From: Thuidium tamariscinum | Lineage: Eukaryota > Streptophyta > Bryopsida > Hypnales > Thuidiaceae | Length of the DNA stretch: 64,000 nucleotides | NCBI GenBank assembly: GCA_947034885.2 | Contig: OX344757.2 | Span: 21,694,001-21,758,000 of the forward strand | Reading direction: 5' to 3' | Shown: one piece after another, positions 38,271-64,000 of the stretch | How the letters are laid out: each line of letters begins with the position of its first letter | Numbering within the stretch: position 1 is the stretch's first letter | Notes under the pieces: generated by a model | What the model saw: the letters and a program-made list of their open reading frames with translations, nothing else | What the model was told of the DNA's origin: nothing | Database searches by the model: none | Made by a program: the position numbers and the translations under genes

Positions 38271-38336
38271 GGGCCATTTCAAACTTGTTCCCCTTGCTAT
38301 TTCCCTTATTGTGAAAGGATGGCTAGTTGTTTATTA

Positions 38337-38662: not shown

Positions 38663-38669
38663 CAAACCT

Positions 38670-42571: not shown

Positions 42572-42822
42572 TTAAACATTTTTATTAGCCTCTAAGTGGT
42601 TTGAAGTGATGTAGATTCCCTAAGAATCTAATGTGGGGGAATTCAATTTTGGCTCTAAGTTACTAAATCAGACTTTCACGTATGATATCACATTGAAAGT
42701 GAAAATCAGGTTGTAGGTAATAGGGGTCTAAGAGGCACCCCTTTACTAGGTGAATTGAAATTAGAGTTAGTTGGTGCAATGGATGAATTTTTAAGGAAAG
42801 AAGAATGATGGAAAAAAAGCCT

Positions 42823-43040
42823 CCCATTGCATCAGTAATATTGTACTACTGTTTCAAAGGGTTTACATTAGAGCATTGAAAAAGTACTATTGCAGTAGAA
42901 AAGTTATATTGCAACAATATAGTTTTAGTGAAAAATTGCCTTCCATTGAAACTATAATGTTGCAATATAATTTTGTACTACAACAATATGCTTTCAAACT
43001 TCTACTGTGAACCCATTGAAGTAGTATTGATGCAATGGGG
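42823..43040. mobile_element. small MITE, CCCATTGCATCA ends
   Basis: The left end CCCATTGCATCAGTAATA and the right end, on minus CCCATTGCATCAATACTA, are inverted repeats. The interior has a second palindrome around ATATTGCAACAATATAG. No target duplication was recognised. Confidence 0.55.
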
Positions 43041-43708
43041 TTTACTTTCTTGACGAATGAAATGTATTCGTAGGTGAATACAAGGAGTTGCATAGTTTGG
43101 GGCATGTTAGACATTTTAGTAGAATTTTTGAAAGTGCAAGTTATTAGGTCAGTATTTTAAGTTCATAGTTGGTGTGATAATCATGTGGCATAGTTCTATG
43201 ATTGAACCATGATATAGTTAGCCCAAAAGTAATCCTCTAGTATATTTAAAGGCATGTAACATGGTTTCAAAAAGTGTCCCTCCCTAGCTAATTGAAAACA
43301 GAACATAGAAAATAGAATACTCATTACCACATTTTTATTACTATTACTAAATGAAAACAAAATGTTTATGTGTTAGATAACCTTCGAGCCATAGTAGTGG
43401 TGATCACAACCTTTGATCTTCATGATCCCAGGGTGTAGGAAGCAAGTTGAAAGAAAAGAAGGTTATGAGTTATAACTTGTGATGGTGATGGTGATGGGTA
43501 GCCCATGGTATAGAGCCACATTAGCATTGAAAAGTCAACAACCAGTTATGGCTTCTCGTTTGTTTATAATTTTTCTAGTGATAAGCTACACTACACTTTT
43601 TCTTTGCATCTATCTCAGCACTAGACTTGATGCCCTCTGTGGTCACCATGTAGAGAGAAATATTGAACTTCTGCATATCAATTCTTTTGTTCGGTTGTAA
43701 CCATAGTA

Positions 43709-43980
43709 AGGTAGGTACACCCAAAAGCGCCAGTTTCTTATACTGTGCCCAGTTCCTGTTATTATGTTGTTCAGATTTTTTACAGTCTTGTTGGTGAGTG
43801 AAAGCATGTTCCAACGCACCAAAGAACAGTGGATTTGGATACCGTATGCAAAAGTTATTAACAGTCAAAGTGTGTTTCTGAAAGTGCCATCTACAGTCTG
43901 GGTACATGACTGCTTTTGAAAATCTATGCACGTTGTACAGAGCGCTTTAAGGTCAGGTGCCATTTTGGGTGTACCTACCT
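43709..43980 (+). mobile_element. mariner-type MITE, AGGTAGGTAC family (272 bp)
   Basis: TA is present at 43707-43708 and 43981-43982. The termini are AGGTAGGTACACCC on both sides in inverted orientation. It is nearly identical over its length to 41,511-41,782 and in the same orientation. Confidence 0.85.
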
Positions 43981-44462
43981 TAAGTTAGACCATATTTTTC
44001 AAGGTCAATCTGAAGACCCTGGTCACTCCAAGGACCAGTGATCCCAAAATTGGCTAAATTTTGCTCGATTACTACAAAATTTCTTCATGTCCTCAATGTA
44101 AATTTAGAAAAAATCTTCCAAAAATGAACATTTGGCTAAAAACCTTGAACTTGTTTTGAGATCACTGCCAAGGACCTGCTGGATGTAAGTAGTTTTTTTA
44201 GGGGATTTTTTCATTTTTTTTCATTTTTTTTCTTTTTCATTTTTTAAAAACAAGGCAAAAACCTTGCATGTAAGTTAAGTTAGGTTGACTGTTGCCATTC
44301 TTTTCTTCACATTTTGAGCCCAGTGAGGGTCGACCTGGGGTCCCTAGTCCCTACAATTGTCTGGAGATGTTCACTTGAATGGTGCGGAAAGGGCTGCCGA
44401 TTTGCGTGACTGGTGCCAAGTCCCTGATGTGAAATTTGATTCCATGTAACTTAAGTTAGGAT

Positions 44463-44580
44463 CCCCATGCCTGCTCTTCAAAGCAACACTTCAAACATTT
44501 TGGACCACTGATCTTCCTTGTCAGAGGAAGATCAGCGGTCCAAAATGTTTGAAGTGTTGCTTTGAAGAGCAGGCATGGGG
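44463..44580. repeat. near-perfect hairpin, two 56-bp arms with 6-bp loop
   Basis: The left arm 44463-44518 begins CCCCATGCCTGCTC; the right arm 44525-44580 is its reverse complement with one mismatch; the loop is TGTCAG. In segmental copy 1 the corresponding place (about 35,629-35,650) has a short unrelated spacer between GGATCC and GGTCCTCTTCAT, so the hairpin appears to be specific to copy 2. Confidence 0.85.
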
Positions 44581-46145
44581 TCCTCTCCTCTTCATGCTCT
44601 CCATCTCCAGACTGACCTCTTCTTTGAAATGGGATGATTTCGAGGAAGATAGGGGACAGAAAAAAACACCTGAGAATTGGCTTCAAAAGCTGTTGAGAAG
44701 GCCAACAACCCAATCATTTGCACCAAGCCACACACCGATACATGATGCCGATGCCGGATTTTGCGGAGAAAGCTTAAGCTTACATGATCAAACTTGCCAT
44801 TGGGGCATGTGTTGTTGCTTAGCAAATTTTGGACACTAGATCGTGCTCAAATTAATTCTAACACCACTTCCAAGTACACCTAATTCCGACTACTTCTTTT
44901 GAACCGACCACTATAGATTCTTGCCTAAAATGTACTCTCACTATTAATGGGAGTTTAGGGTTAGTTTGAGAAAAAACTACTTCAAGTACTTTGAAAATTT
45001 GTGTTGTATTCATTTGGTATCCAAAAATTGCATTCTAAGAGAATCTAGAATGTCCTTTCAACTACTCAAAAAGACTAGGATAAAAGTTTCGAATATAATA
45101 ATGGGAACCATGTTGAATTGCCTATTTGAGTGATTTTAGATGTAGCTTGTTACTTTAGTCTCTCAATACTTCCATTGACAAAAAGGTATTGTTGATCAAT
45201 AATCCAAGCTTAGCATAACTTGATTTTATACATTCATATAAGTACATTTAAAATTGATCCTTTCTAAAACTACACTCATAGATTCTTGCTTAAAATGTAT
45301 TCTCACTAGTCATGAGAGTCTAGAGTTGATTTTGGAATCACCTATTTTTAGCTCTTTGAAAATTCATAGTTTACTCAATTGGTCTCCAAAAATACTTTAA
45401 AAGAATCTAAAATCTCCTTTTGACTACGAACAAGATCCCATGAAACTTTTCCGATATTAATAATAATAGAAAAGATGTTGAATTTTTTATTTGGTTGATT
45501 TTAGTGTAGCTACTTTAATTGCCCAATTTTCACCTTATTAAACTTCATACAATTATCCTTGTCTAATATTTAAAAATAGATCTAAATGATACAAGAACAA
45601 GGAATAAGGTAATTCAACCTATGACAAACACAATTTTGATCACCGTTATTGCAATTCCAAATATTCTATTAGTGCACATGTGTCTTACAAGATATACTAC
45701 ACAAAAAGAGGTAGGATTGCATTAGGCTTGTCTATAGTTGTATCTATCATTGGTTGAGTTACCTCATATTATATATTGTACAAATTACTATGTACAAATC
45801 AATGCTTCTTATTTGGAAGAATAGAGTCCTTATGCTGTTTTAACATTGGAATATATTTGGAAGGAGTAAAGTTTACAAGTTGAAATGGTATGACAAGAGA
45901 TATATTGCCCAAATAAAAGAAACAATAAATAGTAGTGTAAAGGAAGTCACTCCATGTGTAGTTATCAATTTTGTTGAGTATATTTGTGCTACTACTTATT
46001 AGTAGTGCACATTTCAAAAACATGCACCATTGCTACATAGTAGCATATACATAACATTCACAATTGACTATTTTTCAACTTCTATATGATTTAATGTAAG
46101 AAAAGATATCCTTGCCTCAAATACTTGGTAGGGTTTATGAGGTAA

Positions 46146-46776
46146 CCTCTAAAGTACCATTGTCTCTATGGAAGACAAAATGGGTAATTTTCCTATGAGC
46201 ACAATCTTTGGCAAAAAAATTTGAAATATTTTTGTAAGATAAAAGACTTATTATCTTTATATGCATATAATTTTGATTTTAATCAATGACTAGGTACAAA
46301 ACTTATACTACAATAAACCCAATATTCAACATGGAAAAATTTGTTTCATTCCATGGACATTTGTGATGTAAAAGTTATGGAGCATCTTGTTTTGTAGGCA
46401 ATCAAAGCATCATTTTGAAGAAAATAATATATAAGATTTGTTAATTAGCTCCATTTTTACATTTTTACAAAACAAAAAGTTCCACGAGATTAACTTTGAA
46501 TGCATTTTTTCACAAATCAGTAGAAACCATAATTTTGACCAATAAAAAAAATTCATGTACTAAATATAAAAATTGTATTTTTAGTGAATTTTTGAAGTTA
46601 TATTTTCAAAATTCATTTGAAGAGAATCTAAAAATAATTTTATAATTTTGATTGTACGGATACTTTCAACATTTTGTGTTTTACATTATATTCTTGATGT
46701 TAACTTCAAAAAATTTATAGAACTTATATTTTATAATACATTTGTGTTTTGTCCTAACCCCTTGGGCTTTTAGGGG
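46146..46776. mobile_element. TTAA-family MITE, piggyBac-like (631 bp)
   Basis: The right terminus, on minus CCCCTAAAAGCCCAAGGGG, is followed by TTAA at 46777-46780. It is nearly identical to the left end of the element at 14,471. The left end (GTAACCTCTAAAG) is degraded. Confidence 0.55.
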
Positions 46777-47049
46777 TTAAGAGTCGAAAGAAAAAATTGG
46801 TAAGTAGTTTATCATGTGAAGATCGAAAGAACACATTGCATGTAGTCATTGGTCAAGGAACACTTTCTTCAAATTATTTAGTTGCAACCACTAATTAGGA
46901 ATGAAATTGGAAGCATTCCTATTTGATTAGCCACCTTGGAATGAGTTTATTCTATTAGCTTAAATTTTCCAAATTGAAAAAATGCTTATCTGTAGGCCCC
47001 CTTTCTACTTGTATAAGAATCTTATGATAACTTCTAAATACCTGTGGCA

Positions 47050-47900
47050 CCCCTAAGGCCCTAAATGATCAACTTGTGTTTTTTGGTAACATAGCAATTT
47101 GAGACAGCTCGTTGTGAATGGTGTTTTTTTTAATCCCTTTTCTTTGAAATTTTCACACAACATGTGCCTAAAGGGTTGCTTTAAGGCCCAATAGTTTTTA
47201 TAACTTTTGATTCTAAGGCTAAAAATTTATTGTATGGTATGTAGTTTAAATTTTTTTTGTAGATAGCCCAAGTAGGTCAATTTCTTTTTGAAAAAATCAT
47301 TTTTTTTAAAAGTAAAAATTTGAAATTGGTTTCCAAGATTTATATATATATAAGCTTTGAAATCCATTATTCAACTCAATTTTCAATCTTTTTGAAAAAA
47401 AAATAGAAACTTTGTGTGTAAATTGTTTATTACAACACTACAAACATTGGATTGGCATTTTTTGATTCCATAACTAAACTCTTAACAATTTAGTGTTTTG
47501 AATCATTCTCTACTTCTTTCTACTTATTATTTTTTTCTTATATGTTATACAATTTCAAATGACCTGAATTTTTAAAATATAAAGCCAACTTGATTTGAAG
47601 AGTGAATTTAAAGAATAACCAACAATTTAGAAGTTTTTCATACAAGTATGACATTTTGAAGTACAATTGCCTAGTTTTTTGCATAGCCAAAAAACAAATT
47701 TATGTTAATTCAAATGCTAATATCTTTCAATCTAAATGGAGGAAATTTTTGAAGTTATTTTTACATCATTTCAAACTCTTTAACTAAAATATTCTATAGT
47801 AATATGTGTCAAATTCATTTTTCCTAAAATTTGATACTTGTACTAGAAATGGCAATTTTAGAGCATTTTTGATGAAATCATAGTCCAAAACCTTTAGGGG
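47050..47900. mobile_element. TTAA-family MITE, piggyBac-like (about 850 bp)
   Basis: The right terminus, on minus CCCCTAAAGG, is followed by TTAA at 47901-47904. The left end CCCCTAAGGCCCTAAATGATC lacks an intact TTAA. The interior (TTTTTGGTAACATAGCAATT and following) matches the arm of the palindromic element at 36,308. Confidence 0.55.
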
Positions 47901-48597
47901 TTAAATTAAATCTATTAATGTGATACTTCTAGTATTTTTTTATTCTTTTTCTTAAAGTACACTTTTAGCATCAAAAATCCAATTTTGAAAATGATTGATT
48001 ATGATTTATCTATTCAAGATTTTGTGCAAGGGTGTCCATTGTAATCTTGACTTTTCATAGTGTTGAGGGCTCTTGGAAATGAGCCTCAAATCCACTAGAA
48101 TACTAGATCCAAGAGAAATTATCACATTAGAAATTCATTTAAGAAATTTTTAGATTAGATTTTGAAAAGTCATTATTTAATTGATTGCGGTTATATATGT
48201 TAGGCCCTTTAATCTATTAAGGATTGTGGTCGATTGGAGAGACTGAGAGGTTGATTTTTGGGTCATATGGAGAAAATAATAATAAGTGGAGAAGAATGAT
48301 GATTGTGTCAAATGTGATCATAGTGGTGGAAGTGTAATAAGTAGTTTAGGGTTGCCCAACACAATTTGTGACAAAACTTGGTCTTTTTCCAGGACTTTAT
48401 AAAATATCTTTGTATTTGTATGTATCCAAGCATGTATGCTACAATGTAAATACGTTATTGAATCATATTTCTTTTGGAAAATTTCTTTTTTGTGCTTATT
48501 GCACTATGTGTCTCATCTTTTAGGATTATGATATCTGAGTGGGAAAGGACAAATTCCAGGGAATGCAAACATGCAGTTCCTAATGAAAACCTAATCT

Positions 48598-48868
48598 CAC
48601 TATAAGAAATCTGTGTTTTGGGTGACGATCCCTAATTTTTTATGATAGATTTTAGGTGATGTCAATGTTGACAATCCAAAAATTTTATGTCAACAAAAAT
48701 GTCCAATGTAATATCAATATTAACATAAAAACACTAGACTATCAATGTTGATGTTATATTGGACATTTTTATTGACATAAAATTTTGGGGTTGTCAACAT
48801 TGACATCACCTAAAATCCGTCATAAAAAAATTAGGGCTCGTCACCAAAGAGAAGGGTTTCTTATAGTG
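48598..48868. mobile_element. CACTA MITE with 3-bp TCT duplication (271 bp)
   Basis: The termini CACTATAAGAAA and TTTCTTATAGTG are inverted. TCT is present at 48595-48597 and 48869-48871. Three-base duplications and CACTA ends define the CACTA (CMC) superfamily. The element is almost wholly palindromic around its centre and has no coding capacity. Confidence 0.9.
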
Positions 48869-48871
48869 TCT

Positions 48872-50057
48872 ATTGGCAAATGCCACATGTTCAATTGAAC
48901 TTCAACAATTGCAAAGAAGTGCATCTCAATTAATTGTAACTATAGAATCTTGTGACCTTAGTTATGGAACACACAACTCCAAGAGATAATCAAGGCTTGG
49001 TCCCTAAAGACTCTAGATAATCAAGGAAACCATACATGGAAAGCCCTTATAAATATTGCTAGAATGGAAATATGGCTTGAAACTAGTCATCCTCCTTTGC
49101 AAAGTGGAAGCATTACACCACCACATAAAACTAAGAGGATAGAATGCCAAATAGATGATGGCCACATAAAAATGAGATACATTGCTATCACATTTGATGG
49201 CCCCTAATATTGAAGACAAATCTCTATTGAGGCACAACATAAAGTTTCAATCTAGAGACATACAAAAAATAGAAATTCTCCATCAACATAGTGGCAAAAA
49301 CCTCTAAGGACAAGCAAACAAGGGAAATCCACTTATAAGCCGGATTCTCTACACCACAATTTCAGAGCAGGCACCATTCAATACTGCCAATAAAAGATTC
49401 CACATAGTCTTGGCCTTGCAATGGAGAATGGGAAAATTAGGACAACTTCACATGGCGAGATCTTCATTGCTTCAACTTAGATTCAGTACAATTTGTCCCA
49501 ACATAAATGCATGTACCTACAAGATTGTTGCTTCCATCGGAACAATGTGTACACACAAATGTCAACAACAAACATGCAAAGTCATAGAACTTGAAGCAGC
49601 GGTGCTATTCTGTGAGCCTGCGAGCGTGAGCCTGTGAGCATGGAACAGGGATTTTGTGAGCCTGGAGCCTAACAAATAGAAAATACAAACTTGAACTCCA
49701 TTTTTTAGGAAAAAAACAAATATTTCTACATTTTTGGTAACATTTTTAATTTATTTAAAAATTATTTAATGTATTTGTATAGACCTATGATCGTGGACTT
49801 ATGACAAAAGATATGTATTATATTTGTTAGTGTTGAGATTTCAAAAAATGGACATAGAAAATTAAGCTTGCACTGTTAAAAAAATAAACTTGCCAAAGTT
49901 TAAATAATGAATAATGATAGAGACAAGGCTATATAGAAAATTCTACCAAGTATCAATATTTTTCCAAAGAAAAATAAATATAACCGATCCTAGATATATA
50001 AGTTGAAGCTAAAGTCTTTCATCCACAATTGTCAAGCACCCCTAGAATCCTAAACTT
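48872..50057. other. intergenic, between the CACTA MITE and the transposase gene
   Basis: No gene is supported. The last few hundred bases are the presumed 3' region of the minus-strand transposase gene. Confidence 0.45.
49597..49680 (+). mobile_element. possible terminal repeat of the MULE transposon
   Basis: GCGGTGCTATTCTGTGAGCC followed by GTGAGCCTGTGAGC resembles the terminal repeat of the Mutator-like MITEs at 7,341, 9,848 and 25,085. It lies about 400 bases past the stop of the MULE transposase gene. It could be the outer left end of that transposon, or a separate degraded MITE end. The partner end would lie beyond the window. Confidence 0.35.
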
Positions 50058-51464
50058 CTAGATACGTTGAAGATCATCATTTGGAATATTGATGATACCA
50101 GCCTTAATGAGGAGGCACTTCACTTCATTGAAACTGAAGCTTGGAGAATGAATGAACTTGTCTTCCAAAAGGTTCATTTTGCAGAAGTAGCGAAATAAGT
50201 AATAGAGATGCTTGCAGTTTACGTACTGATGGCGCCCACCGATTGCTGAGACAACCATATCTACAAAATCTGGACATGTGCACTCCGAGTACATACCGAG
50301 TGTGATTTGGTAAACTTTCTGCTTGGGCTCTGTTCCAGATTGAAGGGATATAATGGCTCCTAGTCCAGGAAAGGGGAGCATAGTAACTCCCAAGATTATT
50401 CCTTTCACATTCCCAACACTTTCCCATTTATTGCGATGCTTTGCAGTAGGAGCATTTGCAATACGTCTAATAGGCTTGTTTCTTCGAGTAGTTGGATAGC
50501 TATCAGCGTGTAAAGGAATGGGCTGATCATAGAGGACTGCTTCAAAAACATTGGACATTGTAAACAAGCGTCGAGGTGACATAGGTGGCCGATCCTGGAG
50601 TTGAAAGCCAGCTTCTTGCAATAGAAGTGTTTCTTGTCGAGTCAAGTTAGTACCCGTCAATACAGGCCATACGTCTGGAACTTGAGGCCAATCAATTACC
50701 CAAGCACGTTTTGAGCCCTCAACACATCGATGAATATCGTCTGGGCAGAACCAAAAATCTGTCATGATCTCCTTGTTTCCACCATACTGTTTCTTCCTTC
50801 CATGGTATGTTGGAGCTGGAGTGCCTTTGGAGCCCTTTACAATTTTGGCAACACAACGAATGTTTGATCCTCGCTGTTGAGCTTGACATTTGCAGCTTGA
50901 CTTGTGGGATAGTCTTGCGATATGCCATTGAGAAGTATTGCAGTCGCTCTCCAACGCGGTCGTGACATGTGGTAAATGCTCAGGGGAAGCCAATGTATTT
51001 GGTTCCTTGAAGGCCTCTGTTGGTGTACGTGTTGATCTCTGCATAACTCGAGGTTGAGAAAAATTGACCTTATCTGGCCGATGAGAGTCGCCATCAGAAC
51101 TAATGGGAAGGTCCAGCTTCCGCTTACTACTACCAAAAACCTCCTCTCCCTCTAAGTGTGGAACACGAGTGGAAATATGAGCTGCTCCAGGAAGGACATT
51201 CAAGGCCTCTGCAATCTTCTTGGGATCACCACTACGTCTTGCACTTCTTAACTTAAGTTCCTCCTTTGATGGCCCTGACCTTGATGTAGTACCCTTTATG
51301 AATGCTCGATAATTTGTCATTTGCATGAAGGCTCGAATACAATCATCACATGTGGCAACAAACAGATCTTTACCTCGATTACCCGATTGCTGCAACCATT
51401 TGTTATGTACAGTTTCAGATAAATTGCATGATGGCAAGTCTGCCATTTCTTCCACAGACAACCC

Positions 51465-51845
51465 CTACAAGAAAAAATTTGTAGTGAGATCCAAAATGTA
51501 GTATTTAGACATTCACAAATGAAAACTTTTTAAAACATTGCATAAATAGTAAAGTATTTTATCTTATAATAAGACATGAAGACAAGCCTTTGTTCTAAAA
51601 AATGGTTTAGTGCCTACTTTGTTTAACCTACAAATCAATCTATAAATCACATACTTCCAGAATTACTGATCTCAACAATAGGCATCAATCTTTGCCCTCG
51701 GCTCCGAGGGCAACATTACACCATTCATAATGTGATCTTCAAATCTATCAGAGGTTACGTTTACTTAATTTTTGTGCACAAAAATTCAAGTTAAATATAC
51801 AATGCTCTACAAATACAGAAATTAAAGACATGAATAAAGACTCAC
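51465..51845 (-). other. spliceosomal intron of the MULE transposase gene
   Basis: The 381-base intron has a consensus GTGAGT donor after CAAATG and a polypyrimidine-preceded TTTTTTCTTGTAG acceptor. Removing it joins the DDE exon in phase 0 to the exon carrying the SWIM finger. Confidence 0.75.
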
Positions 51846-53454
51846 CATTTGAGTGGTGCATCCCCATTGGGGATATCGAAAGTGCCAAAAGGCTAGCCAC
51901 AACTCCAATTCTCGCAATGCATCTTCTGAGGCTGCACCAAATGATAGCCACCAAGATCGAATGGCCAAGTATCGAGTCTCAGCTTCTTCCATTGTCCTAG
52001 ACTCCCTGTACTGTTGGCATAAACGAGTATGTTGGTGTTGCATATCTGGTTTGATAAGCTTCTGTGTATGGCGATGCATTGAAGTACTCCAATGCAGGAG
52101 GCATGTGCGTTCACGATTCACCATCTCTGTCTTGGGATTTCCTGATCCGTATATGATACGAACAGCATTCCAATTTGCTTGCGCACTATCAGCCATGAAG
52201 CCCTTAAAGTTTGGACTTTCCACGCCATTGCGTTTCATCACTTCGTTCAGTGACCTCCACATAATACATTGCACTTCTGTGTCTTCGGATTGCATGTCAC
52301 AGACTGCAATAGTCATGACTTTTCTACACCCAGTGTCATACACGTGGCAAGCCATAGTTGTCCAATTTTGGACGCGTTTCACGTGGTCAAACATGAGCCA
52401 CGCGTTCTCCAAATCTCCTCCGGGTTGCATGCGCTTCACGAGGTCCACACCACTACCAGGCCCTTCTACCAACATCTTAAACAAATATACTTTTTCCTTT
52501 CCTTGTCCAGGAAAAACACTATCGTGAATATACTCAAATTTCAAATTCTGTTTCATATTCATAATACTATCTATAATCCCACCCTTTCCAGTGCTACGAA
52601 ACGAAGAGATAGTATTTCGGATGTTAGGGGAACTTAAGTACTGGAACCTATCCATCACATCCTCTAGTGACTTCCCTTGCAACATCTCTTTCGGTCCATC
52701 CCCGTCATGGATGAGATGGTTCTCTAGAAATTACTTACTAGCTGCTAAGGCAATGGACGAGTTAGTTGCACTGAGAGTTCTCGAGACTTCACCAGCTATC
52801 AACTCCGTAATAGTGTCTAATGACTCTCTACATGTTCCAGAAGCCACAGGATGCATGTGGTTCCCTAAATGGATGCATGCCCTGGTCATGACAGTAGTGT
52901 CGTTGAAAACATAATATACTCTAGCATCGCAGACACTAACACAATGAGGTGGAGTCTTACAAATCTTGCAAAGTAGAGTGGAATCCTTGGGAGGGCCAGC
53001 ACCAACATGGAAAGGGACAGAAGTATAACCACACCACTCACTTTCATTGCGCTTTGACAATCTCTTGAGGTAGTCACAATCAGAGTTGTTACATACCAAA
53101 TGGCCGACACAAGAGGATTTCTTGAACTTCAAGCCATCCTCGTTATGAATATTGGATGTCATGGTTCGACACCATGCATGACCATCATAACGCTTGTCCA
53201 TACCATGAAGATTCCTGGCAGCAGATGTTGAAGCTCGAAGCAGGGTTTTCTTGTCGGACATATTTTTGGGTTTTGGTGTCGTGTAGGACGTCTGACGTCG
53301 CGTGTCGCAGGTGACAACATGTCGCTACCCCGTCGCAGCCCGTCGAGTAAGGTAAAAAAAATTTACCCTACGGTAAATGGATTTGGCATACGTGGCAGAT
53401 TGTTCAGAGTGACGTGGAACTTTAAGTAGGCGACTTCGGGTGGGGCGACCACGT

Positions 53455-53970
53455 GTCTAATTTTGAGGGCGACTTCGGGAAGGGCGACCGCGCTTCAAAA
53501 TAGGGCGACCACGTGTCCAATTTTGAGGGCGACCTCTTGTCGAGGGGCGACCTCGGGTGGGCGACCTCTGGTTTGGGGGCGACCTCTTATCAAGAGGCGA
53601 CCGCGGGTGGGCGACCTCTGGTCTAGGGGCGACCTCTTGTCAAGGGGCGACCACGGGTGGGCGACCTCTTTGTTGCAATTGTCAAAAAAACACTTAAAAC
53701 TGCCATTTTTAGTACAAAAAACAAAAAAAATTAGAAATGAAATTTTTTTCATATATAATGGTAGGATCTTGTAATATTATAGTATGAGAATATGTGAAAA
53801 AAATTTCAAAAATTTTCACCACACAGATTGCAAGATAATTGCATTCAAAGTGTAGAAATTATGTTTTGGGGGACTCTGGCGACCTCAGGTGGGCGACCTC
53901 TTGTCTAGGGGCGACCTCGAGTAGGCGACCTCTGGTCAAGGGGCGACCTCGGGTGGGCGACCTCTTTGTT
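53455..53970 (+). repeat. GGGCGACC sub-terminal clusters with a 296-bp tandem duplication
   Basis: Dense repeats of GGGCGACCTC(G/T)GGT occur at 53,460-53,670 and again at 53,875-53,965. Each cluster is followed by the same AT-rich segment of about 215 bp (starting TGTTGCAATTGTC at 53,671 and 53,967), giving a period of 296 bp. The two AT-rich segments are almost identical. Position next to one end of the hAT-like element suggests transposase-binding repeats. Confidence 0.75.
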
Positions 53971-54178
53971 GCAATTGTCAAAAAAACACTTAAAACTGCC
54001 ATTTTTAGTACAAAAAACAAAAAAAATTAGAAATGAAATTTTTTCATATATAATGGTAGGATCTTGTAATATTATAGTATGAGAATATGTGAAAAAAATT
54101 TCAAAAATTTTCACCACATAGATTGCAAGATAATTGCATTCAAAGTGAAAAAAAAATGTTTTAGGGGACAATGACAAA

Positions 54179-54598
54179 CTAAGGTAGACATGCCTATTTG
54201 CAATCTAGCTATATTGGAGTCAATTCTAAGAGGGGTACATATTTATTTGAAGTGTGCACATGTTTCTTGAATCAAACCCAAATGAAATTATAATTTTTCA
54301 ATCAAAATCGTAATTTCTATGAATTTTTGAAGTAGACAATCCTAAATTACAAAACCGCCTTTAGGCTAGGATCATAAACAACTTATAAACATTGTATAAC
54401 CACCTAATCAACAACTAGATATTTTCTATTTAAATAGTGACACATTACTCCAACTTGTCATAAAATCCTTGATTTTGTTATAGAATGAAGGGAATTTGGG
54501 GGGGGAGGTAGAAATGGGGCCAAAACTAGAGTGACGGAAATAGGCTAGTCTAGTTGGTGGAATAGAGTTACAAATGGAAATGGGTTGGTCTACTTTAG
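54179..54598 (+). mobile_element. MITE, GTAGAC-ended family, most complete copy (420 bp)
   Basis: The ends CTAAGGTAGACATGCC and, on minus, CTAAAGTAGACCAACCC are inverted repeats. It has relatives at 4,672-5,081 (inverted) and 23,738-24,110. No clear target duplication was found. It is nested in the hAT-like element. Confidence 0.6.
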
Positions 54599-56006
54599 CT
54601 TAAGAGATTTGATTTTCTTAACTTAAAAAGTTTTCACTTTAGATCTTAACTTAATATATCATTCAAAATTAAGTTGAGAATGTAGGAAAAATAATGTGGT
54701 TGTCATTTTATTTTAAATTATTAAGTAGAAGGTACATCATAGAGGAAAAAAAATAATAGCTCTAAGGTGGAAATGTGGAAATAGAAATTCTAATCCCAAT
54801 GGTGAGATTGTTTGATTAATCAATGCTAATACTACAAAACTGCTTTTTTTAAAATTAAAATTGAAGTAAAAAATGAATCCTATCTCAAACAATTTCAAAA
54901 TCTTATTATTATTGCCCACAAAACAAAATGATTCATAATCTTTGCATCACCAATCTAAATAAAATGAATCAAAGTTCTAAGAAGACAAAATTACAATCTA
55001 TAAGAAAAAAAATTTAATTTTTGTGGATTTGTTTTTACCTACATAATTTAGATCTAAGCTTATTGTGATATGACTCTTGCTTTTAGGCACTAATTCAAAT
55101 AAAACTACATTTCTAGAAAGCCAATAAGATTCTCTATCTTATAATAATGTTTCAAAAAGTTCCATAAAAATTTGACATTATAGGAACTTGTACAAAATCC
55201 ACTTTACCCCCTTGTAGAGACAATGAAACTTTAGAAGATTACAATCTACTAATGTATTACTTATCAAAAAGATTTTGAAATATAAAATTATGGATTGTGA
55301 TTTTTTTTAAATCATCCCCATTTGATTTTTTCTAATCTCCAAGCATCATTATATTCTTATATTTCTTAGCAAGTTAGCATCTTCACCTAAATTTAAAAAT
55401 TAGAAGAAATAGATTTGAATTAAAACTTCTCCGTGTAATTTATGTAAAAGTCAAAGAATCATTCTAAAACTGTATTATTAACTAATTCGATTTCAAAATA
55501 CAAAATAATGAATGGATATTTGTGTAAGAACTTCATCACTTCAATTTTTCTATTTTTCAAGCATCATTGTATTTATGTATAATTTACCACCTTCACCAAA
55601 AATTTTAAAACTAGAGGGAAGAGATTATTTTAACTTAGAACTTCTCTTTTGTTTATATATAAATCTCATAGTCATTCTAATTGTGTGAAATTTATAACTC
55701 AGGAGGGGGGGCACTCCTGGTTTATTTAATTATAGCGTGCAATCAAATGAAAGGTGCTTTTAATTCCCTTAGCCTAAATTTTAAACAATTTTTAGAAATA
55801 AATTAGCATCACTAAAATGAGCTATTATCATTATAAATAATGAAGGGTAGAAAATAATACACAACTTTATCAAATTTGTTTTTCTAAATAAGGGTAGCCA
55901 AAAAGGATCTCTAGAAATTTGAACTTTTATGAAGTATACTAAGTTTGAAATAAGGAATCCTATGAGCTAAATACTATGAGAGCATGAGCTCTACATGTAA
56001 ATGAGA

Positions 56007-56098
56007 GTGACAACTAATGGTGACAACTAATGGTGACAACTAATGATGACAACTAATGGGTGACAACTAATGGTGACAACTAATGGTGACAACTAATG
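56007..56098 (+). repeat. 13-bp minisatellite, seven units
   Basis: Seven units of GTGACAACTAATG occur with one changed first base and one 14-base unit. Near identity of the units indicates recent expansion. Confidence 0.9.
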
Positions 56099-56467
56099 GT
56101 TGTGCTCTTATGAGTACTCACACTTTGAATGTGTTTGAATGAAATTGTTTAAAATGGAAGTATTGCTTATCTAGTCTCTAGCCTCTACATGTATCACATG
56201 TTTAGTCAAAGTTTTAATGACAAATTCTTTTTTCTTTGTAATTATTTGCAAAAAAAATGCAGGTCTTTCTTATGTATAATGAACATAGTGTATAATTAAT
56301 TAGCACCCAAGAAAAATTCAAAATAAAGATAGGGTTATTGAAATTACCTAAGTTTAAAAATTTAGGTAAAGATAGGTCTATTTTAATTCACCAAATGTAC
56401 CTACATTGCCCCCATCTTATAAGGGCTTGAATGCACGTCATGTCCTAATATATTACAAAGTGCATCC

Positions 56468-56764
56468 CCGGGGAGGACACTTCTTGTATATTTGGAGGAT
56501 CCACGTGCGGCGGTGGGGTATTTTTAGGGGGGCTATCAATTACTTGTAATCATTACTTGGCAACATTAAAAGAGCTCCTATTTTACCATAAAGCGGAAAA
56601 ATCAGCCATATTATAATCCCTATTTTATTTTTAAAACACTTTGCCTTTTTAATGTCCCCTATTTTATATGTAAATTTCTTATAAATTTTACCTAAGATTA
56701 TTTAAATGTACCCTATATTCCACCGCATGTAGGTTATTAAAAAACGGGAAGTGTCCTCCCCTAG
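56468..56764. mobile_element. MITE with 9-bp target duplication, GGGGAGGACACTTC ends (297 bp)
   Basis: The inverted termini share GGGGAGGACACTTC. The direct repeat AGTGCATCC flanks the element at 56459-56467 and 56765-56773. A 9-bp duplication fits Mutator; an 8-bp hAT reading is also possible given uncertainty of one base. It lies inside the old satellite region. Confidence 0.75.
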
Positions 56765-58559
56765 AGTGCATCCCCCAAGATTTATAAAGTGAATTATAGG
56801 ATACAAAATAATTATTAGAATTTTGTGTAACTAAAAACTTCTCCATTTGAATTTTTCTATTTTCCAAGCATCAACATATTCATGTATTCTTCATTACCTT
56901 CACCAAAAGCTTAAAAACTAAAAAGAAGAGATTCAGATGAAAACTTTCCCTTTTCATCTAATCAAATCTTAAAGTCATTCTAATGATGTAATATTTATTA
57001 AGTGAATTTTAGAATAAAAAAGAATGCATGGATATTTGTGAACAATCTTCTCCATTTAAAATTCTCTATTTTTCAAGCATCATTATATTTGCGTACTATT
57101 TATCAATCTCCACCTTCAACAATAAATCAAAAATAAAAATGAAGAACTTTAAATTAAAAAAATTTAATTTTTATTTCTACAAATGTTATTTGAAGGCTCA
57201 TCCTAATGGCAAATTATTTATCAAGCAAATTTTAGAACTCAAAATAGGGGATGGAGACTTTAATAACAACTTGCCTATTTCAATTTTTCCTATTTTCAAA
57301 CCATCATCGTTGTCATGTCTTATTTAGGCACCACCTTGATTTTATCCTAAAAATTAGAGGGAAGAGATATAAGTGAAACTTCTCTTTTTTATTTATACAA
57401 CTTTATTTTGAAGGCTTATCCTCATGGTGGATTATTCTATCAAATAGATTTTAGAACTCAAAATAGTAGATAAAGATTTCAATAACAATTTGCCCATAAG
57501 CCCATTTGAATTTCTTCATTTTTCAAGCATCATGATACTCATGTTTTATTTAAACACAACCTTAATTTTGTCTTTAAAATTAGAGGGAAGAGATTAAAAA
57601 AATGAAACTCTTGTTTTAGATTTATGCAACTTTAATTTGAAGGCTCATCTTTTTGGTAAATTATTTATCAAGTGGATGTTAGAACTCAAAATAGTGGATA
57701 GAGATTTCAATAACAATTTACCCATTTGAGTTCTCTATTTCCAAAGTACCACCATACTCATATCTTAATATTTCACCACCTTCATCTCAATCCTAAAAAT
57801 TAGTGGAAAGATATTTAAATGAAAACATTTGCTTTTTGACTTACAAAAATGTCAAAGAATTGTTGTGGTAAAAAACATTTATCAAATAAATTCTAGAATA
57901 CAAAATAATAGATTGAGATTTGTATAAGAAGATATCCATTAAAATTTTCCATTCTTGAAGCATCATTCTACTCAAGTATTATTTACTACTTCAATTTAAG
58001 ATTTTAAAATAAGAAGAAAGAGATTTAAATGATAACTTCTCCTTTTAGTTATGTAAATGTCAATGAATCATCCTCATAGTGTATTGGATTTCAAAATACA
58101 AAATAATAAATAGAGATCAATGTAGATTGTTCCCCATTTAATTTATCAATACATTAAAAATTACAATTCCATTTACATAAACATTCATACAATAATAAAT
58201 TTCCCTTTCCGCAAAATCTGAATCCTCAATGAAAGTTGTGACCTTATCACTCCAATTATCCAGTAGAAAGAACTCATAGGTTAAATTAGATACACAAAAA
58301 TTAAAACCTTACTATAGACAATCGAAAGTAAACAAATCTTGAGAAGAGCTTTGATATTTAGCAAATGAGATTAGACATTTAGCCATTTAGGCATTGAAGT
58401 CTAATTTCAAACATAAACATTTTCTTAGGTCACCAAACATAGAAGGTACATTAATCAATTCAGAAATTGAAGCAAGTGTAAGTACTCACAATGAGTTAGA
58501 CTCTTCTTTCCCTCCATTTTTCAAAAAAATGCCATACTCTATGTTTCTTTCGCGACCAC

Positions 58560-59925
58560 TTCTCAAGGGCAACCTCTTGTGGGCGACCGCGGGTGTGGGG
58601 CGACTGAAGGTAGGAGAATGCGGGTCTAGGACGACCGCGGGTGGAGGTGGGAGCCATTCACTCAACCAAGTTCAAAAAAAGTCATTTTGGGGCCATTTTA
58701 GGCCATTTTGGGGCGACTTCGGGTCTTGAGGCGACCTCTTGTGGGCGACCGCGGGTGTGGGGCGACCGAAGGTAGGAGAACGCGGGTCTAGGGCGACCGC
58801 GGGTGGAGGTGGGAGCCATTCCCTCAACCAAGCTCAAAAAAAGTCATTTTGGGGCCATTTTGGGGCGACTTCGGGGCGACTTCGGGTCTTGGGGCGTCCT
58901 CTTGTGGGCGACCGCGGGTGTGGGGCGACCGAAGGTAGGAGAACGCGGGTCTAGGGCGACCGCGGGTGGAGGTGGGAGCCATTCCCTCAACCAAGCTCAA
59001 AAAAAGTCATTTTGGGGCCATTTTGGGGCGACTTCGGGTCTTGGGGCGACCTCTTGTGGGCGACCGCGGGTGTGGGGCGGCCGAAGGTAGGAGAACGCGG
59101 GTCTAGGGCGACCGCGGGTGGAGGTGGGAGCCATTCCCTCAACCAAGCTCAAAAAAAGTCATTTTGGGGCCATTTTGGGCCATTTTGGGGCGACTTCGGG
59201 TCTTGGGGCGACCTCTTGTGGGCGACCGCGGGTGTGGGGCGGCCAAAGGTAGGAGAACGCGGGTCTAGGGCGACCGCGGGTGGAGGTGGGAGCCATTCAC
59301 TCAACCAAGCTCAAAAAAAGTCATTTTGGGGCCATTTTGGGCCATTTTGGGGCGACTTCGGGTCTTGGGGCGACCTCTTGTGGGCGACCGCGGGTGTGGG
59401 GCGGCCAAAGGTAGGAGAACGCGGGTCTAGGGCGACCGCGGGTGGAGGTGGGAGCCATTCACTCAACCAAGTTCAAAAAAAGTCATTTTGGGGCCATTTT
59501 GGGCCATTTTGGGGCGACTTCGAGTCTTGGGGCGACCTCTTGTGGGCGACCGCGGGTGTGGGGCGACCGAAGGTAGGAGAACGCGGGTCTAGGGCGACCG
59601 CGGGTGGAGGTGGGAGCCATACCCTCAACCAAGTTCAAAAAAAGTCGTTTTGGGGCCATTTTGGGCCATTTTGGGGCGACTTCGGGTCTTGGGGCGTCCT
59701 CTTGTGGGCGACCGCGGGTGTGGGGCGACCGAAGGTAGGAGAACGCGGGTCTAGGGCGACCGCGGGTGGAGGTGGGAGCCATTCCCTCAACCAAGTTCAA
59801 AAAAAGTCGTTTTGGGGCCATTTTGGGCCATTTTGGGGCGACTTCGGGTCTTGGGGTGACCTCTTGTGGGCGACCGCGGGTGTGGGGCAGTTGGAGGTGG
59901 AGGTGGGAGCCATTGCCTTGCCTTT
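58560..59925 (+). repeat. 162-bp satellite built on the GGGCGACC motif
   Basis: About eight units recur, with GGGCGACCGC at 58581, 58743, 58906, 59058, 59220, 59382, 59544, 59706 and 59868. Spacing is 162 bases except for neighbouring units of 163 and 152. Each unit holds four or more GCGAC motifs, the block GGAGGTGGGAGCCATT, and CATTTTGG repeats. Because 162 is a multiple of three, long frames stay open on both strands; these are not taken as genes. Confidence 0.9.
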
Positions 59926-59969
59926 TGTAACATTCTCTTTTATTTTGGATTTTTTTTGGCATTAGATTG

Positions 59970-60937
59970 AGATTTTTCAACTTGTTTACTATTTTTCCTA
60001 AAAATTAAAGAATTGTTGGTAGATGACTCTAAAATTATTCTCTGTGAACAAGTGATAACATTTAAAGAAGAGTATAGAGAGAATGCAAGCAAAGTATAAA
60101 TATACAATGGAATCTATTTTGTTTTCTATTGGAAAATTTGCCAACTTGATGAAAATTAATTAATAATATGGAAAAATACAATAGTGAAGTATTTGAAAAT
60201 ACATCAACATTAAGGTGCTTAATGAGGAAGTTGGGTGTATTGCTTCGAAGAAGCAAATGACAAATGGATAGTTGGTGAATTTGCTTACAGATAAACTATG
60301 GTTGATGAAGCTCTTGAAAATAGTTTCCCCCACCCATTATTTTGTAATAGGACATGATATTCCTATATTACCATAAATGGGTAGGCCACATTGCATGCCT
60401 CTAAATTTCAAAAACTAATGTAAATAAATTAACAAATTCTTTATGATGTGCCATTTAGAAAAATATGTTGAATATCTTGTATGCAAGGTGATAAGGTGTT
60501 GAGATCTATGCATAGAATCTCAAATTTGAATTCTTTTGTGCAAATATTTTGTAATTTTTGTTATAAAATTTACTCTCATTTGTTCATTCCTAAATTACTG
60601 CATGAAAAAGTCTACAAAATGAAATTGAAATATAACATGTAAAGAATCAAGAATCCCCTTGTCTACATATAAAGCTATGATTCATTCTATTTGGACTAAT
60701 GATTAAAAAATTATAGATAATCTTGTTTTTTGAGCAATTATAGAAACTTCTTGAAAAATAACGTATTAGATTTCATTTTGAATGCAATTTTCACAAATTT
60801 TCTAAAAAATTATTTATCAAGTTAAAATTTTCTTCCTAGAAAAATCACACAATTAGAATTTATGTGATTCAATTCTATCCTAGAGCTATCAATAATTTAT
60901 TTTTTTGTTCAACCTATTTCTACTTAACAATTTGTAA
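59970..60937. other. AT-rich interior of the hAT-like element
   Basis: No gene or clear repeat was recognised between the 162-bp satellite and the nested TTAA-family element. Confidence 0.45.
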
Positions 60938-61453
60938 ACCCCTAAGTACTCACGTGGCTTTTTTTTAGTTGTTGCTTGACTTTGGGTAGAATTTTTGGGC
61001 ATTATATTTTTTTTCAATTTAAAAAAATTGGATTGTCTTTCAACATTTACATTCAAAACTAAGATCAATGTGATCAAACAAAAATTATAAGAAAAATAGT
61101 AGGAAGTGTTTAGAATTGCATAGTGTTGAAAATTTTAATATTTGGAGAAAATTTTGATTCTTTCATTATTAGATCTTTTTCATTTTTTCACAAATCAATA
61201 GAAACCACAATTTTGACCAATCCAAAAAAAATCAAGTGCTAAAGATGAAATTTGTATTTTTGGTGATTTTTTGAAGTTATATCTTCAAAATTCATTTGAA
61301 AATAATCTAAAAACAACTTTAAAACTCTACCTATATAGATACTTTCTATTTTTTGTGTTTCATATAATCTTTTTTGATGATAACTTCAAAAAAGTTATAG
61401 AACTTGTATTTTATCACATTTGCATTTTGTCCTAACCTTTTGGGCTTTTAGGG
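60938..61453. mobile_element. TTAA-family MITE, degraded (about 516 bp)
   Basis: The right terminus, on minus CCCCTAAAAGCCCAAAAGG, and the adjacent ACAAAATGCAAATGTG block match the elements at 14,471 and 46,146. The left end ACCCCTAAGTACTCACG is weaker, and the flanking TTAA has decayed to TAAA and TTAG. Nested in the hAT-like element. Confidence 0.5.
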
Positions 61454-61662
61454 GTTAGAGATTGAAAACAAATTTGTTTTTTTGGAATTTTTTTTCTTAG
61501 AATTTTAAATCAATTTTTTTTATTATAATATAACATAAAAAACAAAGTTTATAGTGCAAAAAATTTCCATGAATTACGGTCAAAGTCATTGAAATTGTAG
61601 TCCAACATTCAAAATTTTATTTTTCCAACTTGAATGCTAATATCTTCTAATGGGTGATTGCA

Positions 61663-62489
61663 AGAAACACTTGTACTATTTGTTGCGTTTTGTCACACCT
61701 TAGATTCCGATTTTTTTTTAGCCATAAATTTTGTGTTTTAGCTTCAAATGATTCAAAATTTATTGGGAAGCTACTCATGGCTATTATGTATCTATAATGA
61801 ATTTTGGAGATTTTTCAAAAATAACTTATTATTTTTAAATAGCCCCAAAAATTTCTCACAATACTTGATTTAGGGGTTTTTAGCACCATTTACCTCCCCC
61901 CAAAACGAATTTTGACCTAAAATTTAGAAAAGATGGTCTCTTAGTATATTTATAGCTACTGTCTAAATGAATTTTCAAAATAGACTTATTTTTATGTATT
62001 GTAGAAGTCCACAAAAAGAGCTTCATTTTGCATTTTTTTCCAAAGGTATAAAACATTATTTTAGTGAGTTTTTTGGTCAAATCTCATCTCCGCAAAGTTT
62101 TTCCAAATGATGTATTTTTATGTATTTTAAGAAAAAATGTAAAATGAAGCTCTCTTTGTAGACTTCTACAACACATTAAAATAAGTATTTTAAAAATTCA
62201 TTTAGACAGTAGCTTTAAGTCTACTAGGAGACCATCCTCTCTAAATTTTAGGTCAAAATTCTTTTTTTTTGCAGGTAAATGGTGCTAAAAACCCCTAAAT
62301 CAAGTATTGTGAGAAATTTTTGGGGCTATTTAAAAATAATAAATTATTTTTGAAAAATCTCCAAAATTCATTATAGATTTATAATAGTAGCTTCCCTACC
62401 AATTTTAAGTCATTTGGAGCAAAAAATAAAAAGTTATGGCCAAAAACAAATAAAAAACTAGGGTGTGACAAAAGGCTTTAAGTGTTTCT
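61663..62489. mobile_element. long foldback element (827 bp)
   Basis: The two ends AGAAACACTT and AAGTGTTTCT start arms of about 380-400 bp that are inverted copies of each other, meeting near 62,077. Matching blocks include TTTTGTCACACCYTAG, TTTCTCACAATACTTGATTT and TAAAATTTAGA. The arms are about 85-90% alike by eye. No coding capacity and no clear target duplication. Nested in the hAT-like element. Confidence 0.75.
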
Positions 62490-62634
62490 AAATTTTTATT
62501 TTTTGTATTCTTAGATGAGTGCAATTTTTTTAATAGCATTAGAAGAAGTCACCCTCCTTTCTTTTTAATGCAATGGGGTTTCCCCATTTGCTAAAAAAAA
62601 TTTAAAAAAAAAAAAAAAAAAAAGAAAAGGAAGA

Positions 62635-62740
62635 GGTCGCCCCTACCCGAGGTCGCCCCTACCCGAGGTCGCCCCCACCCGAGGTCGCCCCCACCCGAGG
62701 TCGCCCCCACCCGAGGTCGCCCTCTACCCGTAGTCGCCTA
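62635..62740 (-). repeat. 16-bp tandem array, inverted GGGCGACC motif
   Basis: Six units of GGTCGCCCCYACCCGA are present; on minus each reads TCGGGTRGGGGCGACC, the same motif as the clusters at 53.46-53.97 kb. The inverted orientation at the opposite end of the element fits hAT sub-terminal repeats. An A-rich run precedes the array. Confidence 0.85.
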
Positions 62741-63704
62741 TCTTTTTTAGACCCGCATGCGCCTCCCAAATGTAATACGTGGATGCCACATGGCATCCAG
62801 GTGGCGTTATTTACTATGTGGTAAATTTTTAAAAGTCAAAGGTAACTTTGACTCTATTGGACGTCGCGAGGGTAACCACGAGACGTCGTGTGACGTCTGG
62901 TTGTCGCGATGTCGCGTTGTCGCTAGAGAAAACCCTGGCTCGAAGTGAAGGCAACTCGAAAACCACGTCACCATCAAAGTCAGAAGGAAGATATTGGACT
63001 TTCTGATGTATAATTGAATCATAGTCTAATGCAGCAATTTTGTTTCGAGATCCGCGAACAGATACTAACTTGCGAAGGCACCCAATGATATTGGGTGGTA
63101 CAGAAGTATTTGGACAAATTGGAGGGCAAGAGTGAGTGGATAGAACAGGACTAGTAGAAGGTGTGCTACATTGATAAGAAGTTGGCTTCAAGTCACTTTG
63201 TAGAATCCTATGAGGGTGTGAATCAAGCAAATTTGGTTGGTTGGGCGACTCTCCTTTAGACTCACTAGATATATCTATGATAGGGGATACAAATTCTTCT
63301 TTCACACGGACAAGTGGGACAAGTGTTCTAACTTCCACCATGTGCTCTCGATCCTCTGAATCCAAAACATCACGCCGAGTAAGCGGCATATTGACAGTGG
63401 AATAGTCTGATTGGCGAGGAACGGCTTCATTGGAAGCACCCCTCAAAAGAGAGTTCAAGCCATAAGCTCTATAGCGCCCTATAGGAAGGTGCCAAACATG
63501 ACCATCATCAACTACTATTTTGAGGATGTGAATGGACTCTTTCAGCACTCTAGAGTCCGACATGACCTCCTCCTCGACATAGATACTGGACTGGACAAAA
63601 CCGAATCTAACGTGAAGGGGATGTGAAGATATTGTAGCAAACCCTCCTTCTCCAAGAGGAACAACTAACGGTATCTCGTAGCCATCCGCCCGAATAGAAG
63701 CCAT

Positions 63705-64000
63705 GGACGCTCAAACTAGAAGCCAGTTAAAATCAAAGGTTCATGAAGCAAACTAGGTAAACTAAGAACAACAAATGATTAATCGAGTTCAGAAAGTAAA
63801 GAATATAAGGGTGTAAAATTGTCTCAGCCGCGCGCCTAAGAAGGATAGAGAATATAGCCGCTAGGATGTAAGTAGTTGTCAGAAAATAGCATTGTCAGTA
63901 CCTCCATAATTAGTAGATTTGAAATGGCCGCCTAGAACTTCCTGAAGGATTTCATTCATTATGAACAAGGATTGGTTCCCAAATGTTAGAGAATTATTTG
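63705..64000 (-). other. 5' flank of the MULE transposase gene
   Basis: This is the presumed leader and promoter of the minus-strand transposase gene. No TATA box or terminal inverted repeat was recognised, so the outer end of the MULE element probably lies beyond the window. Confidence 0.4.

What the first reader, a model, noticed from the sequence alone, without database searches (positions are those of the whole stretch)
53233..62945. A 9.7-kb hAT-like element sits in the coding exon of a MULE transposase gene, with a perfect 8-bp duplication
Seen: CAGGGTTTTCT inverted ends, GCTCGAAG on both sides, and the minus-strand frame entering at the right copy continuing in the same phase at the left copy (Leu-Arg-Ala on both sides). 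With one copy of the duplication removed, exon 1 is exactly 718 codons. Known: CAGGG-type ends and 8-bp duplications define hAT. Inferred: a non-autonomous hAT moved into a MULE, giving a dated order of insertion.
Basis: partly seen in the sequence, partly recalled or inferred. Interest (0 to 1): 0.8.

Follow-up and report, generated by a model that had tools for sequence, protein, structure and literature searches.

The report
Non-autonomous hAT beside giant hAT relatives
A 9.7-kb jumping gene that makes no transposase of its own has landed inside another transposon-like gene, and its ends match a family of unusually large (about 37 kb) hAT transposons in the same plant-like genome that carry such an enzyme, plus extra gene pieces.

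Summary
The window carries a 9,697-bp element (53241-62937) with 11-bp inverted ends CAGGGTTTTCT and a perfect 8-bp duplication GCTCGAAG. 22 of 22 paralogs of the interrupted gene compared have no insert there, so it is an insertion, not an intron. The gene's MULE label is not confirmed by Pfam, and its exon also holds a nonsense codon. The element is one of many: 40 near-full-length interior copies were scored (23 rounding to 100% identity), and 11 of 12 further copies checked have 8-bp duplications (10 exact). It encodes no detected transposase. Its ends are shared with a family about 37 kb long: 18 end-to-end spans of 36.6-39.5 kb, 17 with 8-bp duplications (11 exact), 17 with a DUF659-type hAT transposase near the left end (12 of 48 listed copies have open 1,082-aa frames). 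A 361-bp MITE class shares the ends too. The likely system is a giant autonomous hAT driving 9-kb and miniature relatives. A second giant hAT family (22.5 kb) and the 37-kb family both carry SRA (methylated-DNA reader) gene segments, mostly broken; the 22.5-kb family also carries a long RING-finger frame. The insertion is ordinary; 37-kb hATs with such cargo look unusual.

The parts
53233..53240 (.). left copy of the 8-bp target-site duplication GCTCGAAG
   Evidence: single copy in paralogs
53241..62937 (+). 9,697-bp non-autonomous hAT-type element
   Evidence: end pairing; paralogs lack it
53241..53251 (+). left terminal inverted repeat CAGGGTTTTCT
53241..53398 (+). 158-bp left end shared with the 37-kb family (95.6-98.1% identical)
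53430..53966 (+). left subterminal GGCGAC repeats, all in one orientation
57173..57824 (+). 219-bp tandem repeat, 2.9 copies, AT-rich interior
58567..59888 (+). 162-bp tandem array, 8.2 copies, with 35 GGCGAC motifs; its long open frame has no Pfam match
62633..62738 (-). right subterminal repeats (GGCGAC read inward)
62635..62937 (-). right end alignable to the 37-kb element C1:10193053-10229785 (79.7% over 306 columns)
62927..62937 (-). right terminal inverted repeat
62938..62945 (.). right copy of the target-site duplication
62938..63704 (-). 5' part of exon 1 of the interrupted transposase-like gene, from ATG
   Evidence: paralogs L032-L053
51846..53232 (-). 3' part of exon 1; nonsense codon at 52731-52733; GTGAGT follows from 51845 downward
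50058..51461 (-). downstream open frame, probably of the same gene, with a SWIM-like CxC...CxH motif (seen by eye)
   Evidence: no Pfam hit

Best explanation
The 9.7-kb stretch is a non-autonomous hAT element that pasted itself into exon 1 of a multicopy transposase-like gene, duplicating 8 bp. The transposase that moves it is most likely made by a family of giant (about 37 kb) autonomous hAT elements in the same genome. These have the same 11-bp ends, related inner end sequence (158 bp left, about 300 bp right) and GGCGAC-type subterminal repeats, which would be the binding sites, and they carry a DUF659-type hAT transposase, in the best copies an uninterrupted frame of 1,082 codons. A 361-bp MITE class with the same ends is a third tier. 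Shown: insertion, copies, shared ends, duplications, transposase frames. Inferred: that this transposase binds and moves the 9-kb class, and that GGCGAC repeats are its sites.
For: Ends and duplication. 22 of 22 paralogs compared over both flanks have no insert; 5 of 29 paralogs keep exactly one GCTCGAAG. Right-end 19-mer: 80 matches at up to 1 mismatch against 0 in the control; left 16-mer: 95 exact places. Pairing the 95 exact left ends with the 80 right ends: 34 spans of 6.6-10.7 kb, 1 of 12.3 kb, 18 of 36.6-39.5 kb, 10 of other lengths (16.7-69 kb), 32 unpaired. Duplications: 37-kb class 11 exact, 6 with one mismatch, 1 none, of 18; 9-kb class 10 exact, 1 with one mismatch, 1 none, of 12 besides the window. 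Transposase: L133 at offset 4,000 of a 37-kb copy is PF04937, E 1.2e-21; the 48 nearest of 150 scored rows (of 549 candidates) are 89-99% identical to it or are it, and 35 of 48 lie 3.9-4.1 kb (one 5.9 kb) inside an exact left end; 17 of the 18 37-kb spans hold one, 0 of the 35 spans under 13 kb. Of the 48, 12 have a 1,082-aa frame and one a 1,083-aa frame with no stop in the match. The window has no match to the piece (best E 0.23).
Against: No transposition was seen. Only the DUF659 part of the 37-kb family's transposase was read; its dimerisation domain was not, and none of the 150 scored PF05699 hits (of 714 candidates) fell in one of the 18 37-kb spans. Beyond their ends the two classes share no long interior match, only one 70-bp stretch at 80%, but only 2.6 kb of samples of one copy and the first 1.5 kb of 37-kb copies were compared. 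Other hAT families with open frames of 1,061, 1,118 and 1,134 aa exist and could act instead, though the 22.5-kb family has different ends. One 37-kb and one 9-kb span lack a duplication; one 37-kb span (39.5 kb) lacks the transposase; 32 of 95 left ends found no right end.
Confidence: 0.83

Rival explanations
1. The 37-kb unit is not one giant transposon by design but a smaller hAT that picked up nested elements, which then became fixed and travel with it.
For: A 22.6-kb hAT does sit inside a copy of the 9-kb class, with its own duplication. A GGCGAC-type array and sequence resembling dispersed repeats lie in the middle of the 37-kb copy sampled (L137, L138). Fixed nested insertions in giant transposons are described for Ectocarpus (PMC12477816, passages).
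Against: 18 spans cluster at 36.6-39.5 kb and 17 of 18 have outer 8-bp duplications (6 of them with one mismatch), so the whole unit moves, however it was built.
Confidence: 0.4
2. The 9.7 kb is an intron or assembly join rather than an insertion.
For: None beyond the frame continuing on both sides.
Against: 22 of 22 paralogs compared have no insert; exact 8-bp duplication; many dispersed copies with different duplications.
Confidence: 0.01
3. The 9-kb class is moved by a different hAT transposase, or is an independent lineage that only converged on the ends.
For: Several other hAT families with long open frames are present; the interiors differ where compared.
Against: 158 bp left and about 300 bp right are alignable to the 37-kb family; the 22.5-kb family has other end sequence.
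Confidence: 0.12
4. The SRA and RING frames near the transposases are host genes that happen to lie nearby, not cargo.
For: 30 of 117 SRA hits are not near the listed transposase hits. 15 of the 48 transposase copies of the 37-kb family have no SRA hit within 45 kb.
Against: 50 of 117 SRA hits lie downstream of a 37-kb-family transposase on the same strand, 39 of the 50 at 19.0-20.8 kb, and all 17 transposase-bearing 37-kb spans are among those with one; 37 more lie within 4 kb of a PF05699 hit, mostly at 1.74 or 1.94 kb, on many chromosomes. RING hits sit 7.6-9.7 kb inside 17 of the 20 listed left ends of the 22.5-kb family, 12.6 kb inside one, and are missing from two.
Confidence: 0.05

Closest known systems
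Ac/Ds of maize and other hAT systems with non-autonomous classes
   Same: Short inverted ends, 8-bp duplications, subterminal repeats, heterogeneous non-autonomous classes driven by one autonomous element (partly recalled). [quoted passage not shown]
   Different: The proposed autonomous partner is about eight times longer than Ac, and the non-autonomous element is itself 9.7 kb.
KDZ, EnSpm and Sola giant DNA transposons of algae
   Same: Tens of kb, accessory genes, nested insertions. PMC12477816 (passages) gives maximum lengths of 15.2-30.3 kb in Ectocarpus, a 31.7-kb KDZ in Chlamydomonas, and a DNA-methyltransferase accessory gene.
   Different: Transposase here is DUF659/hAT type; the 37-kb units are longer; accessory pieces are SRA and RING.
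ToxhAT (14-kb fungal hAT carrying ToxA)
   Same: A hAT-named element moving a cargo gene; 14 kb (PMC12506042, start of abstract in listing).
   Different: Fungal, shorter, cargo of another kind; here 48 listed transposase copies and chromatin-type cargo.
Pack-MULEs and similar gene-fragment-carrying elements
   Same: Gene fragments between the ends (PMC6431247, passages).
   Different: Here cargo rides in units that also carry a transposase, and part of the cargo frames is open.
Teratorn and Starships
   Same: Giant mobile units with cargo: Teratorn 41-182 kb (PMC6431247, passages), Starships up to about 700 kb (PMC12134995, listing).
   Different: Other recombinases (piggyBac-like; tyrosine recombinase) and other hosts; larger than the elements here.

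Membership tests
hAT superfamily (window element) | Short inverted ends beginning CA(G)GG (definition recalled) | tested here: met
   CAGGGTTTTCT at both ends
hAT superfamily (window element) | 8-bp target-site duplication | tested here: met
   Exact in the window; 10 exact, 1 with one mismatch, 1 none of 12 further 9-kb copies
hAT superfamily (window element) | Own hAT transposase | tested here: not met
   No match to the 100-aa piece of the 37-kb family's transposase and no frame of 120 codons or more in the element apart from the tandem-array frames; the longest of these, 336 codons, has no Pfam hit. Hence non-autonomous, which hAT systems allow
hAT superfamily (37-kb family) | hAT transposase domains | tested here: met
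   DUF659 PF04937 1.2e-21 in L133; 39-54% identical to 27 of the 30 loci found by PF05699 and to L091
hAT superfamily (37-kb family) | C-terminal dimerisation domain PF05699 in the same frame | tested here: inconclusive
   That part was not read; none of the 18 37-kb spans is among the 150 scored PF05699 hits of 714 candidates
hAT superfamily (37-kb family) | 8-bp duplication | tested here: met
   11 exact, 6 one mismatch, 1 none of 18
hAT superfamily (22.5-kb family) | Ends, 8-bp duplication, DUF659 plus PF05699 | tested here: met
   8 of 9 exact plus one nested copy exact; PF04937 2e-35 and PF05699 5.7e-10 in L091
hAT superfamily | Catalytic activity and excision | not testable with these tools
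   Needs experiment
MULE (interrupted gene) | MULE transposase domain PF10551 | tested here: not met
   No hit at this gene or its paralogs among 33 in the genome, 70 of 70 candidates scored; 0 families in 9 of 9 paralogs
MULE (interrupted gene) | SWIM zinc finger | tested here: inconclusive
   CxC...CxH motif seen by eye in 50058-51461; no Pfam hit
MULE (interrupted gene) | Terminal inverted repeats and 8-11 bp duplication (definition recalled) | tested here: inconclusive
   No convincing inverted repeat between 62946-64000 and 36001-53232, but homology to paralogs runs to the window end
KDZ giant transposons | KDZ transposase | tested here: not met
   The transposase fragment matches only PF04937 at E up to 0.01; only 100 aa of it were tested

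The most novel reading that the evidence does not exclude
Giant hAT transposons in this genome carry a chromatin module, a SUVH-like SRA reader of methylated DNA without a SET domain plus a 1,194-aa RING-finger protein, that shields them from DNA-methylation silencing, and this lets them and their 9-kb and 361-bp relatives burst. The SRA segment passes between giant families.
Probability: 0.16. Interest if true: 0.85.

Novelty: new variant of a known kind. Interest (0 to 1): 0.55.

Why it matters
A non-autonomous hAT inside another element is routine. [quoted passage not shown] One 37-kb copy and one 22.6-kb copy share an SRA segment at 94% DNA identity although their transposase pieces are 48% identical, so cargo seems to move between families. 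If any of the SRA and RING frames work, transposon defence against methylation becomes directly testable.

Tried and rejected
Intron or chance: rejected by paralogs and copies. 9-kb class as a simple internal deletion of the 37-kb unit: no long interior match found, but only samples of the 37-kb unit were compared. MULE by profile: no support. L091 hAT frame as transposase of the 9-kb class: rejected, it belongs to a nested 22,597-bp element with its own CATATTTA duplication. The 26.5-kb span on C10 is a false pair: its left end belongs to a 361-bp copy. Plasmid collection search with the transposase piece: no match. Structure prediction of the interrupted gene: machine busy twice, never run. 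Species: not identified; 11 chromosome-sized contigs and SUVH-like best matches suggest a land plant (inference; a moss was my guess only). Paper searches, meant to find the species, did not settle it.
Full report
Observation. The window element spans 53241-62937 (9,697 bp). Its ends are CAGGGTTTTCT in inverted orientation, the only two matches in the window, and it is flanked by GCTCGAAG on both sides. Counting one duplication copy, 718 codons run from the ATG to GTGAGT. The frame has a nonsense codon at 52731-52733 that 9 of 9 aligned paralogs lack, so this gene copy is broken in two ways; the order of the two events is unknown.

Insertion, not intron. A search with the left flank found 40 scored matches of 71 candidates, the window's own included. 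Of 29 paralog loci viewed next to the site, 5 hold exactly one GCTCGAAG; the others differ in one or more bases or have diverged further. All 22 paralogs compared over both flanks (L032-L053) have no insert; in 21 the two flank matches meet within a few bases and in one (L053) within 47. In 6 of 29 paralogs an open stretch of 729-746 codons spans the site. The gene is thus a member of a multicopy family. Whether it is a MULE is open: PF10551 has 33 hits in the genome, none here; nine paralog proteins have no Pfam match at E up to 1 and their profile no PDB match. A SWIM-like motif is seen by eye.

The family. The left 16-mer has 95 exact places; allowing three mismatches there are 4,164 matches against 2,566 for the reversed control. 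The right 19-mer has 80 places at up to one mismatch against 0. Pairing exact left ends with right ends by coordinate gives, of 95: 34 spans of 6.6-10.7 kb, 1 of 12.3 kb, 18 of 36.6-39.5 kb, 10 of other lengths and 32 without a partner. The interior piece 54250-56000 gave 51 matches from 40 scored of 4,008 candidates: 40 near full length, of which 23 round to 100% identity (the window's own included), 10 to 99% and 7 to 93-98%, and 11 short ones at 65-73%. 26 of the 34 short spans hold one of the 40. So the 9-kb class spread recently. Target duplications at 12 other 9-kb copies: 10 exact, 1 with one mismatch, 1 none; at the 18 37-kb spans: 11 exact, 6 with one mismatch, 1 none. A 46.8-kb span also has an exact duplication. 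A third class of 353-361 bp shares the ends: 27 places of its right-end 16-mer against 0 in the control, of which 5 pair with exact left ends by coordinate; L029 has an exact duplication and L007 one mismatch.

The partner. Seven 300-base samples of the 37-kb copy C1:10193053-10229785 were read. One, at offset 4,000, is open on the minus strand and matches DUF659 at 1.2e-21; the other six gave no identified gene, though only one of them was scanned. Searching the genome with the 100-aa piece gave 150 scored rows of 549 candidates; the nearest 48 (89-100% identical) form the family: 35 of 48 lie behind an exact left end, at 3.9-4.1 kb except one at 5.9 kb; 17 of 18 37-kb spans have it and 0 of 35 spans under 13 kb. 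Twelve of the 48 have a 1,082-aa frame and one a 1,083-aa frame with no stop in the match. The window element has no match to it. Both ends align between classes: left 158 bp at 95.6-98.1% in 12 loci of the 37-kb type, right 79.7% over 306 columns with one copy. GGCGAC repeats point inward from both ends of the window element. I infer that the 1,082-aa protein moves all three classes.

Cargo and a second giant. L091 turned out to be a copy of the 9-kb class broken by a 22,597-bp hAT with CATATTTA on both sides. A pattern for its two ends has 194 matches in the genome against 1 in the control (100 rows listed, 85 of them used). Of the 20 left ends listed, 14 pair at 22.1-22.7 kb, 4 at 25-41 kb, 2 not at all. 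Duplications: 8 of 9 exact, 1 not. The nested copy carries a DUF659 plus PF05699 transposase (two frames of 845 and 272 aa parted by one stop; 1,118 aa open in other hits), a frame with an SRA domain (PF02182, 7.4e-20) and a RING-finger frame (zf-RING_2 3.2e-8). PDB matches of the SRA frame are led by plant SUVH9, SUVH5 and SUVH6; UHRF1 follows. Genome-wide SRA search: 117 matches from 135 candidates; 50 lie downstream of a 37-kb-family transposase (39 of them 19.0-20.8 kb away; looked for within 60 kb), 37 within 4 kb of a listed PF05699 hit, 30 elsewhere; 33 of the 48 transposase copies have one within 45 kb, 15 do not. By my count about 80 of the 117 matches contain a stop, and many of the rest cover part of the domain, so most SRA copies look like fragments; that counts against a working protein. 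Five SRA matches among the 30 have no stop and a RING hit 7.7-8.4 kb away, but three of those five RING matches contain stops. The SRA segment of a 37-kb copy and of the 22.6-kb copy is 94% identical over 411 bp while their transposase pieces are 48% identical over 99 aa. The RING frame has 108 scored matches of 700 candidates; 18 of 108 have a 1,194-aa open frame with no stop in the match; 48 of 108 lie within 12 kb of a listed PF05699 hit. None of the 17 transposase-bearing 37-kb spans has a listed RING hit; of 21 37-kb-family transposase copies checked, 2 outside those spans have one within 36 kb. Only the best RING matches were scored, so a more distant one is not excluded.

Known and new. 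Giant DNA transposons with accessory genes are known in algae and fungi: PMC12477816 gives 15.2-30.3 kb and a 31.7-kb KDZ (passages); PMC6431247 reviews others, including Teratorn at 41-182 kb (passages); Starships reach about 700 kb (PMC12134995, listing); ToxhAT is a 14-kb hAT (PMC12506042, listing). I saw no paper describing a hAT of this size or hAT-borne SRA/RING cargo in searches, which cover only an open-access library; I read listings and passages, not whole texts. So the window element is a new member of a known kind, and the system behind it a new variant.

Limits. Ages are not calibrated. 

Noticed in passing
L091:1064-10000 (C6:21331828-21354424): A 22,597-bp hAT with exact CATATTTA duplication nested inside a copy of the 9-kb class (first 9 kb and right edge read); 194 end-pattern matches genome-wide.
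   Followed up: partly
L091:2092-2775 and L140: SUVH-like SRA segment shared at 94% DNA identity by one copy each of two giant hAT families whose transposase pieces are 48% identical; most copies carry stops.
   Followed up: partly
L091:8858-10000 (-): RING-finger frame, open for 1,194 aa in 18 of 108 scored matches, at near-constant distance inside the 22.5-kb family; 700 candidate places.
   Followed up: partly
L137 (C1:10215053-10215352): GGCGAC-type array in the middle of a 37-kb copy, next to what looks by eye like a gene start on the minus strand.
   Followed up: no
window 58567-59888: 162-bp tandem array inside the element repeats the subterminal motif 35 times in the left-end orientation; copy-number change may explain 9-kb class length variation.
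   Followed up: no
window 47416-47776, 28284-28566, 36304-37051: Stretches 73-83% similar to the left interior or samples of the 37-kb family, probably relics of related repeats.
   Followed up: no
G000 genome-wide: Other DUF659/hAT families with many open frames of identical length (1,061, 1,118, 1,134 aa), pointing to several recently active hATs.
   Followed up: partly
C6:124522-171294, C6:8233581-8293725: Longer spans consistent with 37-kb copies that hold nested elements; the first has an exact outer duplication, the second was not checked for one.
   Followed up: partly
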